From contig OZ004587.1 of assembly GCA_963924555.1 (NCBI GenBank), positions 2,170,001-2,234,000 on the forward strand: 64,000 bases of DNA, in the 5' to 3' direction. The notes below the pieces were generated by a model that ran no database searches, was not told where the DNA came from, and saw nothing but the letters and a program-made list of their open reading frames with translations. This document shows, in pieces, positions 13,501 through 64,000 of the stretch. The stretch comes from Crambe crambe (Eukaryota; Porifera; Demospongiae; Poecilosclerida; Crambeidae). The first letter of the stretch is position 1. Each line of letters begins with the position of its first letter. Position numbers and translations under genes: made by a program.

Positions 13501-16500
13501 CCATAAAGAGTGAGTGCGGGTGATACAGAGATGATGCAAGGGTGGATGGACCATAGCCAGGCTCAAGAAGCGAGAAGCAAACAAACAGAAGAGATGAGGC
13601 AGTTAACACTAACGAAGCTATCGTCTAAGGAAGATATCAAGGCCTATTTGATGACTTTCGAGGAATGATGGAGGCATTTAAGGTGAAGGAAGACCTCTGG
13701 ACATTCAAACTAGCCTAGTAAAACAAACGACTACAAGCCAGTGAAGAAAGCAATACTCAAGTGGTACGACATCAGCAAAGAGACTTACCACCAACACTTC
13801 CGGTCTGCAAAGAAAACGGAAGGTGAGGGGTATTTGGAGATAGCAACAAGATTGCAAGACCTACTGGACAAGTGGATGGCTGGCTGCATGTCAGGATAAC
13901 ACCCCTGACATGTAATCTCAACTGTGGATTAACACTTATGTCTGTGTTTAATTGTTACTTCTGTGTGTCATGTGAATTTTATGTTGTGCTAATATGTGGA
14001 CTCTTTGATGTGTGTCTAGAACTTTCTGTGTGTGTGGATAATTGGATTCTGGAAGCAGTGAGATAGCTAGCTGATCTAGGAGAGATCAGAGTAGTTCTAT
14101 TTGTTTTTGTAAGAGATTTAACATTTACTATAATAACATTTTAAAAGCTGCATCTTACTCTATACGTACTCTCTAGGGCTTGTAAGTTTCTCCCATATAT
14201 TTTTCAATACAGCCATTTTCTTAGACTCCATTTACGTTTATTTACTACCGTAGACTTTCTGTATACTAAGTAGTCGATATTATGTGCTGCAACAGATGCT
14301 GGTCAATAATGGTGACTTATGCTACATAGAAAGCTGTAATGCTTACCACAAAGTACTTACATACATACCTAGATAAAGCCTAGTGCCTACAATCCACTTA
14401 GATAAGCCCTAGTGCCCCTAAGACTGTATGAATCAATCAAGGCAATTACAACATGCGCATTATGCACACACAACACATACCGTATAGCCGGAAATACTGA
14501 CGGGAATTATATTATACGATTTCCCCCCCAAAATGTTTTTGATGGTATTTTATTTGACGAACCCACGTTGTATAATTATTGCGCGCAAAATTCAAATCGA
14601 CCATCGCGCCTGCGCGCAGATATCCACGTCCACGTGGTCTATTTATTGTAGCGCTGAAAAAATATGGATTCCTTCGAGTTATCCAGCTGTGTGAGGGGCC
14701 ATCATATCTATAAGAGTTCATGGACTCCAACTCTTGGAGAAGAATTGGACTGTAGGAGAGAGGCTGATAACAGTAGCGATCCCTATGTTGTTGCTGTTAT
14801 TAGGATGTCTGCAATTGTCGGATACGTCCCCAGGAGAATTTCAGCTGCTTGCTCTCTTTTCCTTCAAAAGGATGGCTCTTCAATTCGTTCTATAATCACA
14901 GGCTCAAGACGCTACTCCTCTGATTTACCCCAGGGAGGCCTAGAAGTACCCTGTCTCCTAAAATTTTCAGGAAATGCTAAAGAGATTGCTAAATTAAGGA
15001 AATTGCTGATGCCAACAAAAAAGCAGCTGGATGTTGAACCGCCTCTAAAGAAGAAAAAAAATCAATCCAGTTCCTGATGACTTGGAAGTCAACCTTCCAG
15101 AACAGTGGTTATCCTATAATAATATTGTACTTACTATGGAGGATAAAAATATCATAATAGCTGGTGAAGAGCTGACAGACAAACATAATCGACTTTTCAC
15201 AATATCTAATCAGGAAGGATAACAAGGATATAATTATGTGGTCTCCAATCTACACTTACTCTTCATCGCATCCAGAATCCAATAAACTCTGAAACTACAA
15301 CTGCCCTCTATATTATACACAGCCGAAAGAACCATTGGATTATTCTCACAAATATAGGTTATGCTCTAGGCCAAGTGAAAATTTTTGATTCCATCTACTT
15401 TACCATCAACCAAGAAACACTCAAGCTTATATACAGTATTTATGGAGCTAATATTCAAGTTACTGTTGAAAAAGGCCCTAAGCAAGTTGGTATTAAAGAT
15501 TGTGATCTCTTTGCAATAGCTACAGCTGTACTACTTGTCAATGGAGGTGATCCTGTTACTGTCAATTTTGATCAAAACAGTATGTGAAAGCATTTAGTTG
15601 AATGTTTTGAATCATACAAGTTCACTTCCTTCCCCATACTGCAATTTTAGTTCATTATTGTAATAATATCAGATTGGAATGTACATTAAACATCCATAGC
15701 ATGACTAAAATTAAATAACCTCAGTAACAGCATCCAAAATACCAGTTTTCTTGAATCCATTAATGATGATGCTAGGTTGAGCCTGTAGGCATTGCCAAGC
15801 ATGAATAAACCAGTTCATACTATTTTCTTTATAATACTAGCACTAACATCAACCTTCACATTCATGACTGGAACAGTTTTTAGCTGCTCTTGCATTTGTT
15901 CAGCATACCAAGAATGAAAACACTTTTTCAGCTCATCCTTCATTGGCTTATTTACTGAGACGTCTAAAGGCTGCAGTTTGTCTGTAGAGTTAGCTGCAAC
16001 TATTACAAATCTGATATTATGCTCTTTAAGTAACCTATAGAATTCAGGAGTGGTTTGACCACGAAAGCAGTCAAAGATTGCCAGAGTAGGATGAGTTTGT
16101 GGAATCTTCAGAGCCTTCCTTTTCCTTTCAAGAAATGGAATGATAACTTTTTCCAAGTAGCGTTTCATTGTCACCTCATTTGACCAGTGATTTTCAGTAT
16201 GCCAAACATCCCAACCATCAAGAACAGTAACTTTTGGGTGACAACGAACTGTTTTACCTTGATAGATAACCTGAGGAGGCAAAAATTCACCAGTTAGAGT
16301 AGCAGCAAAGACGGCAGTAACTTGACGCTTGTCATCACTGTTAGCAATCAGAATAATTTTTTCCCCTGCCTTGTGCATCGTCCACTGGCCTGTTGGAACA
16401 AAACGAAGCGGTGTTTGATCCCAATTGAATATTAATTCTTGCTTAATCTCATTCATCACAATCTCTGCTTGAATATCAGCCAGGAAGTCGTCTTGAATCT

Positions 16501-19500
16501 CCTTAAACTGATAAATAGATATTTTCCCCGCATTAGAACACTTTCTCTTCACATATCCCATGTGTATTAAGAGAGATTTAGCCCATGATTTTGTTAGTTC
16601 GATATGCCCACCATGCTGAACAAGCAGGCTTTGATCTCGTGCAGTTATAATTCCCTCTGCTGCAGCCAGCACTATGGTAGTATTAATTACCCCTCCAACT
16701 GTCCTCATTCCTTGAATGTAATCTCTCACAGCTGTGTCTAGCTGTTATGCATATTTACCTATCTGTGCCCTTTTCTCGGCGTCATAGTGATTATACTTGC
16801 CTCTTTTTGATTCAGACTGCGTAAGCTTTCCAGCTTCCAGACATTCCTTGATTTTCTCCCCAGCAAGCTTCAAATCTTCATGAGATAAAGAGCGACACAA
16901 TTCTTTATCAGGTAAGAGTATACTCTCCTTCTTTGATAGATACTTTAACAGAGCCATCTTCATTCGATCAGCAGCTGGCCAAATACGCGCGCATGGCATG
17001 CATATGCGCATGCGCAACATAAGCCGCACAATGCGTTTTTGACGGTTTATATTTTAACGGTATGATTCACAAACTGCCAAAGCGTCAAATTAAATTCATC
17101 GTCAATATTTCTGGCTATACGGTACCAGACCTCTGCATTTTGACATAGATTATAACAATTTCAATGAGTCATAACCTGACCATGACTTGCATGACCTGAG
17201 AGTCAGTTCACTTGCTCCGCTCGCTCACTGAATTATGTAGCTAGCTAGCTACTTTGACTGCAACATGTAAATCCATGGGCTTGACTTGATATGGTGGTAT
17301 CATGCTACATACTCTATTATTGTTTCCATTTGTAAATTTGTAAATTTTAGAGCATGCGTGATAGGGTAACGGGATTATAGTAGTCATTTATGTGTCACTG
17401 TGTGTCATGCACCTGATCTCTGAGATGGCATGTTTTTAACCCTTGAGAGGTGGATTTTCAATCCTTCAGATAAATACTACCGCAACTATGCAACAATCTA
17501 ATGTTTGATAACTACATTTTAGCTCTGCTGCAATGCATCTTAGCTACAAACAACTAGCTCCTATCTATGCTGCGATCCTCCAACTAATGCACACCTACAA
17601 TTCAGCTTACCCACTCCTTGAACAGTGGTACCCTTAAATTTTAACAGCATCAGGCTTAGACTTTTGTAGCACATGCACATTAAATGTTCTCTGCATGTAC
17701 TGAAGCGACCAAGTATCCTCTAATCTTTTAGTATACGAAGGTAAGACACTGGCAACAAGGTCAAGCCAGCCTACATTTTTTTTCGTGGGGTGATTGAAAA
17801 ATAAGGGTCTGCAAACTTGCATCGTCAAGTTGTTCTGCACAGTCAGCAGTACTGGTACATGGTTGGCTGGATCCTTAATCTGATGTCGTGCACCTAATGA
17901 GATAAATGCACATGCAATGTTAATGAGCAGATCTACGAAAAGAGCTATCTCTTGGAGAGTGCCGAGTTGTTGGGGTACAGCAGTATGCAAATAGAAGCTG
18001 TGACTGCGGATGATACTTTTGTACCATTACCCACAGGATGTCTTAAAGCCACACCTAATTATGAAATATGATGCACATCCGTCCAGAAAACATCTGGACA
18101 CTCAGAATAATGCAACCATAGACCCTTATTTTTCTACTGCACCTGTGAAAAAAAAATAAGTGGGCTAGCTAGCAAGACTAATGAGGTTCTTCACGAAAAA
18201 TCCGAAGGGATGATGTATAATATCACCGAGGTTGAGCCGAGGTGATTATTATGTCATCCGTGAGGATTTTATCCTTGTGCCAGTGTCTTTATTTAGAAAA
18301 TGGAAGATACACTGTAAAACCTTGAGCGCTCAAAACTTTCCTTGTATCAGCACTTCTCTTCTTAAGGATGTGGATACTAGTTCTCCTATAAGTTGCAAAG
18401 CTAATTTGGGCTGGGAAGAACTACTCAGCATTCCTGTTGATTCAGAGCACAACATTTTGACAGTAGGAAGCACCCGAAGTGTGTGAAGAGTCTGAGGGCT
18501 ATGAATGTTACTTTTTAAATTCTTCACAGCAATATGAAGACAGCGTTGCAGCTGAAATTGACTAGACAGCTATTTTTGTGGCGGCATCACAAGAGCTCAA
18601 GCTGGTCCAGGATCATCATTCTAAATCTCTGTCCGCAAATGAGTTCCTAGGAGTGAAAGTGATATTCTATAATTGGCGAGCCTCCTTTCATGCAAATTGA
18701 GATACACATGTGCTTGTTCCACCTTTGATCCCACAAATAAAACAAGCCCACAACACTTAGCAACAAATAACTAGAGGTTATTACTTTCTACAGCATTTTG
18801 TCATAGGCTTATCTAAGTAGATTCTAGGCACTTGGCTTTCTAGTATTATACAACCTCCTGTGTATGCTGCTGCACCACTTCATCCTGACAGCAACATTTT
18901 AGCCTAAGAAGTTGAATAAAGTATTTCTGTAAGACTCCTGCCTATAGTCGGAGGTTTTAATATATTGTAGCTATAAGCTGGGTGAATTAGATCGGTTGTC
19001 ATTGACCTTGAACATAATCAGAGAGTATGATAGTACTCTCTAAGTAGGGATGGTTGAATGACTGATGAAAACGGCGATTTTAGAAGTCGCTGTAAAATGA
19101 TACTGCTTTATCTTCTGCTCTTAAGTTAGGAGTTGCTGACTGTAGGATGGAAGTATTCTGGACTTATGCTAGGCAATCTGTGCCAACCTTACTTACAAAC
19201 TACTATGATATCTGTCATAAGATGCTCACATTTTGATGCTAAATCTTTGGCTCTGTGCAAATCCTCCTCCCACAGTGACACCCACCCCCTCGCATGCGAT
19301 CAGCTCCACTTAGTGGAACCCCACTTTTACAAAGGCTGCATACGGGCCTGTATTACCAATGAAATGAATACCATTCTCTTCCTTAGACACAAGTGGCATA
19401 AGCCACTGATTATCAACCATACTTTAACCCTCGCACCATACATCTCCCTCACTGATTGTCGGTCATCAAAGTCTTAACCATCATCCTAATAATGTCATAT

Positions 19501-47509: not shown

Positions 47510-49024
47510 TTATAAAGTACGCAAGTAATCCACCACCTCACTGTGACCCTTCGCTAGGGCATGCTGGAGTGGTGTCTGGTTGGAATTGTTCTTGACATTT
47601 GTAGGGCAATGGGCCTGTTCAACGAGATATTCCACTATTGCGAGATGACCTTCAATCGCTGCCCAATGGAGCAGAGTGTCTCCATTGATATCTTTATAAA
47701 TGGAGCCAGTATCTTTGTTTTGGGTTAGGTATTTCACGATGGAGAGATGTCCAAACTTAGCTGCCAGGTGCAGAGGTGCGAGTTTATGCTTGTCCAGAAT
47801 ATTGGGGTCACAGCCATGCTTCTCAATGAGGTTCTTGACGAGGTGGAGGTGACCCACTTGTGAAGCATGATGCAGTGGAGATCTTCCATACTGACCTGGA
47901 AGATGAGGACTGCACTGCATTACAGTGATGAAGTACTCCACCACATCAATGTGACCACCAATCGCTGCTGAATGGAGTGGAGTGTTTTTCCACTTATCTT
48001 GATATTTTACGATACTATCTTTATTTTTCGCGAGGTATTTCACGATGGAGAGATGTCCAAACTGAGCTGCCAGGTGCAGAGGTGTGAATTCATCACCGTC
48101 CTGAATATTGGGGTCACAGCCATACTTCTTAATGAGGTTCTTGACGAGGTGGAAGTGACCCTTAATAGAAGCATGATGCAGTGGAGATCTTCCATTCCAC
48201 CCTGGAAGATCAGGACTGCACTGCATTACAGTGATGAAGTACTCCACCACATCAATGTGACTATTAAGAGCTGCTTCATGCATTGGAGTATTGTTATAGT
48301 TATCTCTTGTAGTTAAGCATTTCCTATCTGCTGTTAGATATTTGACTGTTTCCAAGTGACCTTTCTGTGCAGCGAGATGTAGGAGGGTTTCTTGATTCGT
48401 GTCTGTAGAAGCTGGGTCACACCCACACTCCACTATCAAGTACTTGACAGTGGACAGGTGACCCTCCTGAGCAGCCATAAAGAGAGGTCCTCTACCATAC
48501 TCCCCTTCAGGAAGGTTGGGATCACATCCACATTCCTCAATGAGGAACTTGATGATATTGGTGTGACCCTTCAGAGCTGCCTCATGGATGGGAGGATTCT
48601 TGAACTTGTTGGGGAATGCTAAAATCTCCTGCATTGACATGGTTATTTTCATCCACTCTATCAAATGTTTGACGACTTCTAAACTACCACTATAACAGGC
48701 ACAGTGTAAAGGTAAATAACCATCTTCATCCTGTTCAAGGGGATTGGCATTATGCTTGTCCATTAAGTACTGGACGATGGAAAGATGTCCATATTCAGCT
48801 GCATAGTGTAAAGGAGTGGTTCCAGTCCAGCCTGGAAGTGAAGGGTCGTAGTGTAGATCCTCAGTGAGGAATTTAATTATCTCCAGCTTTCCATTTTCAG
48901 CTGCTATATGTATAGCAGTATCATCGTTGCTGTTCTTTGACAAGGGGTCGAGTCCCTTTGCTATGAGATCTTTCATTTTTTTCAGGTTTCCTTCTTTGGC
49001 AGCATTGTGTAGGTCTTTCTTTTC
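47510..49024 (-). CDS. Ankyrin-repeat protein, large last exon (15 repeats)
   Basis: One intron-free exon of 505 codons from an acceptor (TGACATGACAG) before 49024 to the stop at 47510. Fifteen ankyrin repeats of about 33 residues follow each other, with clear TPLHxAAxxGHLxIVKYL signatures; the first (DLHNAAKEGNLKKMKDLI) begins upstream of the first Met, so the Met at 48976 is not the natural start. Repeats 8-10 and 11-13 are a recent three-repeat duplication sharing HIDVVEYFITVMQCSP and SPLHHAS. Ankyrin arrays bind proteins; no catalytic domain is present. Entry is in phase 0, the same as the exit phase of the coiled-coil exon at 55141-55269, so those two are probably joined. The short ending (VVDYLRTL) closes the last repeat. 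Confidence 0.88.
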   Translation of the reverse strand, partial: EKKDLHNAAKEGNLKKMKDLIAKGLDPLSKNSNDDTAIHIAAENGKLEIIKFLTEDLHYDPSLPGWTGTTPLHYAAEYGHLSIVQYLMDKHNANPLEQDEDGYLPLHCACYSGSLEVVKHLIEWMKITMSMQEILAFPNKFKNPPIHEAALKGHTNIIKFLIEECGCDPNLPEGEYGRGPLFMAAQEGHLSTVKYLIVECGCDPASTDTNQETLLHLAAQKGHLETVKYLTADRKCLTTRDNYNNTPMHEAALNSHIDVVEYFITVMQCSPDLPGWNGRSPLHHASIKGHFHLVKNLIKKYGCDPNIQDGDEFTPLHLAAQFGHLSIVKYLAKNKDSIVKYQDKWKNTPLHSAAIGGHIDVVEYFITVMQCSPHLPGQYGRSPLHHASQVGHLHLVKNLIEKHGCDPNILDKHKLAPLHLAAKFGHLSIVKYLTQNKDTGSIYKDINGDTLLHWAAIEGHLAIVEYLVEQAHCPTNVKNNSNQTPLQHALAKGHSEVVDYLRTL

Positions 49025-49307
49025 CTGTCATGTCAGAGAAGGAAACAGTGTGAACCTCAATTTCATTAAATCTATGACTTAATAGAAATCTGGAAGTTCA
49101 TGTATCATGTCATTGCACATTTAGCTACTAATGATCACATCATCCCCTCATGTGAGAAAAAAGATCTCATAATGAAGAAGGATCTGGAAGTTTATGGATT
49201 GTGTCTCTACACATTGAGTTACATGAACTACAACATTGTTTATAAGTAACTGTAATTAGAGCTTGTAATGATTGTATGTAGCTAGTGAATACCTTTCTTA
49301 TTATTAT

Positions 49308-60883: not shown

Positions 60884-63768
60884 CCACTCCCCCTTTTGAA
60901 GAATATGTCCCATATTCGCTGACTGTTAGTGGGAAATTCCTGGCATGAAAAAATCAGGAGGAGCACGATTTCGCTGTGGATATCGGTGTGAGGGTGGAGA
61001 GTTTGAGGGTGCATGTGGCACCGATGAAACATCATCCGATACTGTGAGATGAGTTCCTGGTGGTGGTGGGGGTGGAAGTGGGTCTTTCTCCTGGTCATTC
61101 TTCCTTTGCTTTGTCTTTTGGCGAGTGGGTAAGCGCATGTCTGGTGGACATGCCTTGAGACGGTCAAAGTGAACCACCATTCGTTGTCGTCTGGCTTGAA
61201 CATTCTCTATCCGATAGGTTACTTCCGATATTACAGTGACAACTTTGTAAGGTCCTGTCCATGGGGAATATAGCTTCCTAGATTGCCCACGGGGTATCAC
61301 TGGTGAATTTAACCACACCAAGTCTCCAACACTAAAGGGTTTTCCATGCACCTTTCGATCATAGAATTCCTTTTGTCGCTCAAGTTTTTGTCCAGTTTTC
61401 TCTCGTACAAACTCATATGCAGTCTGCAGTTGCTGTTGCAGTTGAGTTGCGTATTCTGAATGAAATTGTGGATCTGTGGTTTCTGCAGGAGTCCCATACA
61501 TAATATCGATAGGCATTCGAGCCTGGCGACCAAACATGAGAGCAAATGGTGTATATCCCGTAGTTGGATGTACACTGGTGTTGTAAGCCATACAGAGACG
61601 TCTCAGATGATCTTCCCAAGCAAATGGTTGGCCTGCAGCTGCTGTTGAGAGCATACTCAAAAGAGTGCGATTGAATCACTCAACTAGACCATCAGATTGA
61701 GGATGGTATGGTGTTGTTCGGGTCTTAGCCACCTTGAGCAGTCTGCATGTTTCAGCAATCACTTCTGACTCAAACTGTCTTCCTTGGTCTGAATGAAGTT
61801 GCTCAGGAATTGAAAATCTAAAGAAGAACTCATCTGTCAACTTCCTTGCTATGGTAGTTGCTTCTTGGTTGGGAATTGGATATGCTTCAGTCCATCTGGT
61901 AAAGTAATCAGCCACCACCAGTATATACTTATTCCCAGTCTTGGATTCTGGAAAAGGTCCCAGAATGTCTGTTGCCACCATTTGTAATGGATATCCTGTT
62001 CTGATGCTCTGTAATGGAGCTCTTGGCTTTTGTGGAGGGTTCTTCCTAGCCGAACAAGTAGCACAATTCCTACACCAGTTCTGCGTGTCTTTATGATGAC
62101 CGGGCCAGTAAAATCTTTCTTTTACACGGGCAAGCATCTTTTCCATGCCCAGATGACCACCGAGTGCCCCTTCGTGTAAATCTTCAAGCACCTCATCTCG
62201 TAGTGACGTTGGAATAATCAACTGCAGATGAGATTTTTCTTTCATAGGATGTGCATATTGCCTGTAGAGAATGCCATCTCGCACAATCAGCTGGTCCCAC
62301 AGCTGCATTAAGCGTCTTGCGGCTGAGCCAAATTCTCGCTCATCTGCTTTTAATGGTTTCTCTCCTGCTTCTTTGGATATCAGTAATGGTTTGATAATCG
62401 GATCTTCTAGTTGAGCATCTCGTAGGGTCTTCTGAGTTCTCTCTGATGGAATTTTTACAGTCTCCATTGCATGGACAACAGGCATGCCAGGTGAATCGAG
62501 AACGGACTCAATTAGTGAGAACTTGCATCCTTTTTTTCCAAAATAAAGCAGCTTCTTTGCAATATCCACACTGGCCTCCATCTCCTTCAGGAAGTTCAGA
62601 CCAATGATTGCTTCTGTGGTCAAAGAGCTCACCACAATGACATTGAGAGGTAATTCTTCTTCATCCAGCTTGATGGTCACATTGGCTTGTCCATGGACAT
62701 GAATTGGTGAACCATTTACACCTACCAGACTCTGTCCAGTCCATGGCTCTAGATCACGTTGAAGTCTGGCATTGATCTTGTCCCACACATCCTTCCTCAG
62801 TAGTGTTACTGGAGCACCAGTGTCAAGCAGGAAATTCACAGGCTCGCCTTCCACTGAGCTCTGTATCCTTAGGCACCCTACTGAGGAAATGGTGGAAATA
62901 CTAGAAATTAAGTTACACTCATGGGCCTTACTGTCACCCTCTGGCATTTGGCCCTTCTGCTTGGAGCATTTCCAACAGGTTCTTGGCGAACTGCTTGACT
63001 TCTCAGTCCATCGTTTCTTGTTGTATTGATGGTTGTGTTGAGTTGGCTTCTTCTGTGCCTCACTGTACTCCATTCTTTGGGAAGATGGGTTGTTCAGCTT
63101 GCTCTCCAGCATGTCAACTCGCTCTATCAGTTTCTCAATGAGGTTAGTCAGCTTGTCTGATGATGACATAGCTGACACAGAAACTTCTTCTTGTAGGACA
63201 CCAGCAACTGCCTGTTCCCCACTCTTGTTTCCAATCACATATGCTTCCATTTCCAGAGTGGAAGCAACGGCATCATCTAGCTTCTCAGGCTTCTGCTGCC
63301 TTACACTAAAGGCTACCTGAGGGTGCTCAAGCTGCTGGAGGTACTGATTAAGCGCCAGTCTCTCCCTTGCTTCTGCCTGCAGCTTTGGGTAAGCTTTGTC
63401 TGCCAGCTTGCTCAGGTCATCTGCCAAGTCAGCCCAGCCCTCAGTCTTCTTCTTCCTGCGGGACTGGAACTCTGCTTGGTATCGTCCTTGACGACTCTTG
63501 GGCTCAAATCGTGTTGTCAGAGCTTCCTTTGCATTATCGTATGTCCCCCTAGCTTCTTCAGATAGGCGCTGAAAAGCTATCTGAGTTCGACCAGTAAGTC
63601 GTGTTTTCAGCCACTTCAGCTTCTTCTCATCATTCCACTCATTAACATCTGCGACACTTTCAAAGTGATATAGCCATTCTTCCCATTTCCCATCTCCAGT
63701 GAAGGGTTCTGGAATCACAAGTGGTCTTGAAGTTGCCATGTAGGTATGATCCTGCCGACTACGCCAGT

Positions 63769-64000
63769 TGTAATGTGGCCGACTTGCGGAATATCTCGCA
63801 ATCAGAGTAGGAGGTTTACAGCAGCAAATATTATCTTATAACTCACAATTTTAGCACACTGACAACTGACAAGACTACTACTTATATACTAGACAGAAAG
63901 ATGATGACCTAATGTATGATGTGTGTATGCAGTGAACCATTGATGTGAATGCATGGTGGAGCTTACAGTCAGTCGTGGACTATGACACAAAATACAACTA
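63769..64000 (-). repeat. 5' LTR of the young Ty3/gypsy element (partial)
   Basis: Starts TGTAATGTGGCCGACTTGCG on the plus strand and is cut by the window end. Confidence 0.88.

What the first reader, a model, noticed from the sequence alone, without database searches (positions are those of the whole stretch)
14480..17122. pogo-type transposon carrying a HIRAN plus Ulp1/C48-like protease gene
The TA-flanked element has a DDE transposase on one strand and, convergent to it, a gene with a HIRAN-like DNA-binding domain joined to a cysteine protease that keeps the C48 His, Asp, Gln and Cys in canonical spacing. Ulp1-like genes are known cargo of some MULE and other transposons, but in a pogo element with HIRAN this is unusual. 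Inference: a SUMO-directed protease could shield the transposase or counter host silencing. This copy is decayed; intact relatives may exist.
Basis: partly seen in the sequence, partly recalled or inferred. Interest (0 to 1): 0.85.

Follow-up and report, generated by a model that had tools for sequence, protein, structure and literature searches.

The report
Jumping genes carrying HIRAN DNA-end-binding genes

Summary
Window 14478-17124 is a decayed pogo-superfamily (DDE_1, DD35D, TA-flanked) transposon with a convergent second gene encoding HIRAN plus a C48/Ulp1-like protease. It is not a chance insertion. Ten elements of this genome, the window's included, have matched TACCGTA ends around HIRAN, C48 and transposase, and five loci keep one open 330-354 aa HIRAN-C48 frame. 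Copies 97-99% identical sit in unrelated flanks, HIRAN and transposase distances correlate, and the pairs that could be scored have dN/dS below 1.

Two results change the reading. First, HIRAN is the more constant partner: one transposase clade (8 of 24 ingroup rows) carries HIRAN without the protease, and two of its near-identical copies have open frames. Second, a canonical Tigger element of the same genome carries a different HIRAN gene on the same strand inside its own ends.

Best explanation: the HIRAN protein acts on 3'-OH DNA ends made during transposition, shielding or channelling them, and C48 is an optional isopeptidase brought there. The mechanism is untested. Ten literature searches listed no paper on HIRAN in a pogo element. 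I rate it a new variant of a known kind.

The parts
14478..14502 (+). left terminal inverted repeat with TA at its outer edge
   Evidence: the repeat finder I1, 92% complementary to 17100-17124; in the whole-element pairs similarity starts at or within nine bases of TACCGTA
14664..15074 (+). start of the cargo gene, HIRAN domain (domain match 14733-14912)
   Evidence: PF08797 27.3 bits, cut-off 24.7
15049..15222 (+). linker and start of the C48-like part, shifted frame in this decayed copy
   Evidence: stop-to-stop ORF; the region is continuous in the intact relatives
15234..15584 (+). C48/Ulp1-like catalytic part with His, Asp, Gln, Cys in order
   Evidence: 31-45% identical to the C48 parts of the five open cargo frames; such proteins match PF02902 and, as a profile, Ulp1/SENP in PDB
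15818..16744 (-). pogo-type transposase, catalytic part (DDE_1, DD35D)
   Evidence: PF03184 45.2 bits; spacing counted on the sequence
16748..17053 (-). transposase N-terminal part, cut off by an in-frame TAA at 16745-16747
   Evidence: same reading frame; similar stretches at C13:1515k, C8:5661k and C3:1681k
17100..17124 (-). right terminal inverted repeat with TA

Best explanation
This is one decayed copy of a lineage of two-gene pogo-superfamily transposons. Gene 1 is a DD35D transposase. Gene 2, convergent to it, encodes a HIRAN protein, in many subfamilies fused through a linker (with a basic run in 4 of 5 open cargo frames) to a C48-type cysteine isopeptidase. The two genes have moved and diverged together (shown). 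Proposed working: after the transposase cuts, HIRAN binds the freed 3'-OH strands at the transposon or donor-site ends. There it keeps out or redirects host HIRAN proteins of the HLTF/Rad5 type, much as a free HLTF HIRAN domain blocks HLTF from stripping Cas9 off a cut end, so that re-insertion or repair favours the element. Where present, C48 removes SUMO or a similar tag from proteins at that site (inferred; optional, since one clade lacks it).
For: Layout repeated: of 23 held stretches with both HIRAN and transposase, 15 show both matched ends, 10 with C48 (window included) and 5 without. Of 26 transposase loci with E<=4e-41, a convergent HIRAN was found in 23. Among 39 HIRAN profile matches, 14 lie within 3 kb of one of the 150 scored DDE_1 matches, 0.25 expected if places were random and independent. 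Open HIRAN-C48 frames at 5 loci. Copies 97-99% identical in unrelated flanks, similarity ending at or within nine bases of TACCGTA. Transposase-HIRAN distance correlation 0.92 on 22 rows, 0.81 on 15 non-redundant rows, 0 of 5000 permutations as high; transposase-C48 0.90 on 15 rows (0 of 5000), 0.58 on 10 non-redundant rows (8 of 5000). dN/dS 0.19-0.34 in 4 unsaturated HIRAN pairs and 0.24-0.47 in 9 of 10 C48 pairs. A second HIRAN-transposon union in a canonical Tigger. The free HLTF HIRAN domain inhibits removal of Cas9 from cut ends, the N90A-N91A form much less (PMC11237066, passages); the Asn that aligns with N91 (numbering recalled) is invariant in 8 of 8 HIRAN rows from this genome.
Against: No functional data. 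[quoted passage not shown] A six-row HIRAN profile from these elements found no PDB chain at E<=10, and HIRAN is under its cut-off in 2 of 4 intact cargo proteins. The single-sequence fold of the window HIRAN was poor (pLDDT 47). HIRAN was not found at 3 of 26 transposase loci: C11:5538k, where a TACCGTA end lies about 90 bp beyond the C48 remnant, C8:5661k and C5:6032k (1 kb examined). Of 150 scored DDE_1 matches 136 have no HIRAN profile match within 3 kb; at least six of those 136 do have HIRAN by protein comparison, but most scored DDE_1 matches show none, so pogo transposition does not need HIRAN in general. One C48 pair gave dN/dS 0.90. The permutation tests treat rows as exchangeable.
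Confidence: 0.45

Rival explanations
1. Target or timing factor: the HIRAN protein brings the transpososome to replication forks, where nascent 3' ends and modified PCNA are found, and C48 trims SUMO there. This would resemble TnsE of Tn7, which uses replication cues (recalled).
For: HIRAN of HLTF/Rad5 is tied to replication fork remodelling (PMC11237066 and PMC7804152, passages). Drosophila pogo transposase was reported to bind PCNA (recalled; the search returned no paper).
Against: A simple PIP-box pattern was found in none of the transposase frames listed. Insertion sites were not analysed.
Confidence: 0.2
2. Counter-silencing: the C48 domain strips SUMO from repressors at the element, HIRAN only anchoring it to DNA.
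For: SUMO promotes silent chromatin in animals and other eukaryotes (PMC8131101, start of abstract in the listing). Ulp1 domains recur in transposons and have been suggested to act in transposition (PMC2836005, passages). dN/dS below 1 in 10 of 10 unsaturated C48 pairs, one of them 0.90.
Against: Near-identical, open-framed HIRAN-only elements of the same lineage exist, so the protease is unlikely to be required. No evidence on substrate.
Confidence: 0.2
3. Passenger: HIRAN(-C48) is a captured host gene with no role in transposition, carried along.
For: Transposons capture genes; C48-PHD frames elsewhere in the genome suggest that C48 circulates.
Against: Frames kept across deep divergence, dN/dS below 1, co-divergence with the transposase, and a second HIRAN union in Tigger.
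Confidence: 0.12

Closest known systems
pogo superfamily of IS630-Tc1-mariner transposons (Passer, Tigger, Lemi, pogoR, Mover, Fot)
   Same: DDE_1 domain, DD35D spacing, TA at the ends, short TIR, 2.1-3.5 kb; 1.2-5.2 kb, DD29-56D and TIRs of 40 bp or less in most families are given for the superfamily (PMC7386202, passages)
   Different: a second, unrelated HIRAN gene convergent to the transposase; no CENP-B_N or HTH_Tnp_Tc5 reported by Pfam in the two full-length transposases tested
Ginger1 and Mutator elements with Ulp1 domains
   Same: cut-and-paste element that encodes a C48/Ulp1 domain (PMC2836005, passages)
   Different: in Ginger1 the Ulp1 domain is part of the transposase; here it is fused to HIRAN in a separate convergent gene, and the transposase is of another superfamily
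HLTF/Rad5 HIRAN domain
   Same: HIRAN domain; the Asn aligned to HLTF N91 and the Asp three residues on are invariant in 8 of 8 rows (numbering recalled)
   Different: no helicase or RING match among the Pfam hits of the four intact cargo proteins; free-standing or fused to C48; encoded by a transposon
Tigger elements
   Same: one Tigger family of this genome also carries HIRAN
   Different: there HIRAN lies on the same strand downstream of the transposase, probably with an intron, and is about 26% identical to the one studied

Membership tests
pogo superfamily | DDE_1 catalytic domain | tested here: met
   45.2, 47.0 and 53.7 bits vs cut-off 22 in the window, C6:3893k and C5:3256k proteins
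pogo superfamily | DDD triad, DD29-56D | tested here: met
   35 residues between the second and third Asp, counted by hand on the window, C6:3893k and C5:3256k proteins; range from PMC7386202 passages
pogo superfamily | TA target duplication and short TIR | tested here: met
   in copies with unrelated flanks similarity ends at or within nine bases of TACCGTA. No empty site was examined, so duplication of TA is inferred from the ends.
pogo superfamily | CENP-B_N and/or HTH_Tnp_Tc5 DNA-binding domain | tested here: inconclusive
   not reported at E<=10 in two full-length transposases; both found in the Tigger of the same genome
pogo superfamily | place in a named pogo family by phylogeny | not tested
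   no named reference transposases were put in the tree
HIRAN (PF08797) | profile match over curated cut-off | tested here: met
   window 27.3 vs 24.7; of 4 intact cargo proteins 2 over (27.7, 24.8) and 2 under (24.0, 20.0)
HIRAN (PF08797) | binding of 3'-OH ssDNA ends | not testable with these tools
   bench assay needed; N91 equivalent kept in 8 of 8 rows, N90 equivalent in 1 of 8
Peptidase C48 (PF02902) | profile match over curated cut-off | tested here: met
   2 of 4 intact cargo proteins over cut-off, 1 below, 1 not reported; the window fragment alone not reported
Peptidase C48 (PF02902) | His-Asp-Gln-Cys in order | tested here: met
   5 of 5 open cargo frames: His-Asp 16-18 apart, Gln-Cys 6 apart (in C16:5645k the script took a nearer Gln, the alignment shows one 6 before Cys)
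Peptidase C48 (PF02902) | SUMO/NEDD8/ubiquitin cleavage | not testable with these tools
   bench assay needed
Ginger1/Mutator Ulp1 transposons | Gypsy-integrase-like or Mutator transposase | tested here: not met
   DDE_1 instead

The most novel reading that the evidence does not exclude
HIRAN is a recurrent accessory of pogo-superfamily transposons: at least two lineages acquired it independently (this convergent HIRAN/HIRAN-C48 lineage, and a Tigger with HIRAN on the same strand). In both it acts as an element-encoded 3'-end-binding protein that protects or channels transposition intermediates against HLTF/Rad5-type host factors, with C48 as an end-tethered isopeptidase in part of the first lineage.
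Probability: 0.35. Interest if true: 0.82.

Novelty: new variant of a known kind. Interest (0 to 1): 0.64.

Why it matters
Cut-and-paste elements are usually thought to leave their intermediates and donor breaks to the host. An element that encodes its own HIRAN protein, in one genome at least twice over, would be a handle on how eukaryotic transposons deal with host end-processing. The presence or absence of C48 within one lineage gives a natural comparison for what a transposon-encoded Ulp1 domain is for, a question raised when Ulp1 domains were noted in Mutator and Ginger1 elements (PMC2836005, passages).

Tried and rejected
Chance adjacency or a single chimeric insertion: rejected by copy number, matched ends and co-divergence. 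C48 as an obligatory part: rejected, one clade has none detected. Whether C48 was lost once or gained once is unsettled: the single outgroup has a long branch (1.44 on each side of the root), the root fork is open and the nodes that nest the HIRAN-only clade have 86/90 and 80/75; with that root a single loss is simplest. HIRAN as a general pogo feature: rejected, 136 of 150 scored DDE_1 matches have no HIRAN profile match within 3 kb, although at least six of those have HIRAN by protein comparison. Relatives in IMG/VR and in bacterial/archaeal genomes: none confirmed (pattern hits 42 and 105). Fold of the window HIRAN without alignment: pLDDT 47, not used. PIP-box pattern: two hits, both in C48-bearing frames (C9:7789k, C6:3811k), none in a transposase frame. 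First TIR finder demanded six exact terminal bases and 18 of 24 matches and missed most ends; looser ones replaced it; 8 of 23 HIRAN+transposase stretches still show no pair of ends, some because the held stretch stops short. Literature: ten searches. By their listings none pairs HIRAN with a pogo or Tigger element, but one search listed 20 of 34 papers and one search listed 8 of 9, and five of the six papers (HIRAN domain and transposase) were not opened. Seen in papers: passages only of PMC7325037, PMC7386202, PMC2836005, PMC11237066 and PMC7804152; the rest as search listings. Subscription papers and Repbase were not searchable.
Full report
What is in the window. The element runs from 14478 to 17124, with 25-nt inverted repeats that are 92% complementary and carry TA at both outer edges. 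On the minus strand lies a transposase with a DDE_1 match of 45.2 bits against a cut-off of 22; counted on the sequence, 35 residues separate its second and third Asp. One in-frame TAA at 16745-16747 breaks it. On the plus strand, convergent to it, an ORF with its first ATG at 14664 gives a HIRAN match of 27.3 bits against 24.7. Two frame changes follow, and then a 117-aa open stretch with the His, Asp, Gln and Cys of a C48 peptidase. Pfam does not report the window's C48 fragment by itself. Elsewhere in the window are an ankyrin-repeat frame (47510-49027) and a frame with aspartyl-protease, H2C2 and integrase-core matches (61676-63835).

It is a lineage, not an accident. The window lies in a 143-Mb genome. 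HIRAN gave 39 profile matches, the window transposase 141 listed protein matches and DDE_1 150 scored profile matches of 248 candidates. Fourteen of the 39 HIRAN matches lie within 3 kb of a DDE_1 match, where random independent placing predicts 0.25. With transposase loci added the number is 22 of 39, one of which (C17:6340304) is a different HIRAN ORF just outside an element. Near-identical copies are among these, so the events are fewer than the counts. Of 26 transposase loci with E<=4e-41, a convergent HIRAN was found in 23 (C6:3884k alone) and not in three: C11:5538k (C48 remnant present, with a TACCGTA end about 90 bp beyond it, so an internal deletion is likely), C8:5661k and C5:6032k (1 kb examined).

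Whole elements. Of 50 held stretches with a HIRAN match, 23 also hold transposase, and 15 of these 23 show both matched ends. Ten, the window's included, carry HIRAN, C48 and transposase (2.6-3.5 kb); five carry HIRAN and transposase without C48 (2.1-2.4 kb). The ends read TACCGTA followed in many copies by a GGGAAATTTTC-like stretch. Five loci keep HIRAN and C48 in one open frame of 330-354 aa; two of these also have long open transposase frames (480 aa; 443 aa). Whole-element pairs 97-99% identical sit in unrelated flanks, and similarity ends at or within nine bases of TACCGTA; for the HIRAN-only pairs of C5:3256k one end lay outside the held stretch. TIR-bounded derivatives of about 0.55-0.72 kb that keep part of HIRAN also exist.

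What the second gene encodes. Of four intact cargo proteins scanned, PF02902 is over cut-off in two, below it in one and not reported in one; HIRAN is over cut-off in two and under in two. All five open cargo frames keep His-Asp-Gln-Cys, with Gln and Cys six apart. A C48 profile of seven rows, five of this lineage, finds Ulp1 (1euv, E=0.0015) and SENP1, 2, 5, 7 and 8 in PDB, besides four unrelated flavoprotein sequences at E=0.38. A HIRAN profile of six rows finds no PDB chain. Another HIRAN frame of the same genome (C12:5967k, the best profile match) does find HLTF (E=6e-9). Through alignment A4 the residue that aligns with HLTF N91 is invariant in 8 of 8 rows, while the N90 position is Asn in 1 of 8; which Asn of HLTF bears these numbers is recalled.

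Evolution. The transposase tree (25 rows, 24 ingroup) puts the eight HIRAN-only rows in one clade with 100/100 support. With the single long outgroup the HIRAN-C48 rows are paraphyletic, which favours one loss of C48, but the root fork is open. In the HIRAN tree the same eight rows form one side of a branch with 93/91 support. Pairwise distances of HIRAN and transposase correlate at 0.92 (22 rows) and 0.81 (15 non-redundant rows), none of 5000 permutations as high. For C48 the values are 0.90 (15 rows, none of 5000) and 0.58 (10 rows, 8 of 5000). For rows that I picked (13 HIRAN, 9 C48, 12 transposase), unsaturated pairs give dN/dS of 0.19-0.34 for HIRAN (4 of 78 pairs), 0.24-0.47 in nine and 0.90 in one of ten C48 pairs (of 36), and 0.52 and 0.67 for transposase (2 of 66). 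The pairs share history and some members are decayed copies, so these values are rough.

A second HIRAN-transposon union. Three copies (C9:3753k, C5:4468k, C16:4084k; C9 is 98.8% and 99.3% identical to the other two) are Tigger elements with CAGTGGACCCTC ends. In the C16 copy both ends are present, 2494 bp apart, around an open 549-aa frame with CENP-B_N, HTH_Tnp_Tc5 and DDE_1, followed on the same strand by a HIRAN exon and a further open exon, with a GT...AG interval between them read in the C9 copy. The C5 copy also has both ends, with its transposase in two frames, and C9 lacks the transposase-side end. This HIRAN matches Pfam at 37.8 bits and is about 26% identical to the convergent one. 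Orientation, transposase family and HIRAN sequence all differ, so the unions look independent.

How it may work. For HLTF, HIRAN binds 3'-OH ssDNA ends; HLTF uses it to strip Cas9 from cut ends; and the isolated HIRAN domain inhibits that stripping, the N90A-N91A form much less (PMC11237066, passages). DDE transposases work through free 3'-OH ends (general knowledge). A transposon-made HIRAN protein is therefore placed to shield or steer the 3' ends of excised or donor DNA against HLTF/Rad5-type factors. That step is inference, and a Rad5 HIRAN that keeps two of ten HLTF contact residues shows that not every HIRAN keeps them (PMC7804152, passages). C48 fused to HIRAN would act as an isopeptidase brought to the same ends; because a HIRAN-only clade with near-identical copies exists, it is an optional part.

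Relation to known systems. Ulp1 domains in transposons are known: Ginger1 and Mutator (PMC2836005, passages). Pogo elements are described with one or two ORFs encoding transposases (PMC7386202, passage). Ten literature searches listed no paper pairing HIRAN with a pogo or Tigger element; some listings were capped, few papers were opened, and the library lacks most subscription journals and Repbase. The class is therefore known, and the HIRAN gene and its recurrence are the new part. The distribution outside this genome could not be tested: viral and prokaryote collections gave nothing and no other animal genome was available.

Noticed in passing
L003+L104 (C9:3753131-3757400), L002+L106 (C5:4468140-4472300), L004+L105 (C16:4084028-4088300): Tigger element with a second, same-strand, probably two-exon HIRAN gene inside its ends; open 549-aa transposase frame in the C16 copy.
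   Followed up: yes
G000 C11:1.58-3.78 Mb: 31 places with fragments related to this transposase (38-49% identical in the main pieces), 28 of 31 on the minus strand, spaced about 35-150 kb apart along one chromosome; could be exons of an amplified host gene derived from the transposase, or a giant repeat.
   Followed up: no
L061, L062, L064, L071, L072, L073, L079: Open frames joining a C48-like domain to what looks like a C-terminal PHD finger (PHD over cut-off in the 2 of these 7 that were scanned), resembling the Ulp1-PHD parts reported for Ginger1; their transposases were not sought.
   Followed up: partly
L008 (C17:6340178-6341098, minus) and C9:6640744: 307- and 315-aa frames with HIRAN matches; the first is 24.4 bits against 24.7 with no C48 match, the second was not fetched.
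   Followed up: partly
L016 (C5:7243403-7246603): HIRAN frame (29.4 bits) convergent to a frame with a weak DDE_3 match (17.7 bits, cut-off 28.6): a possible third kind of HIRAN-transposon neighbour.
   Followed up: partly
C8:1519505-1520052, C18:4730748-4731291, C16:312236-312740 and similar: A family of about 0.5-0.55-kb short elements that share the ends and in most cases a piece of the HIRAN region, at 12 places.
   Followed up: no
window 61676-63835: Gypsy-like retrotransposon frame with aspartyl protease, H2C2 and integrase core matches.
   Followed up: no
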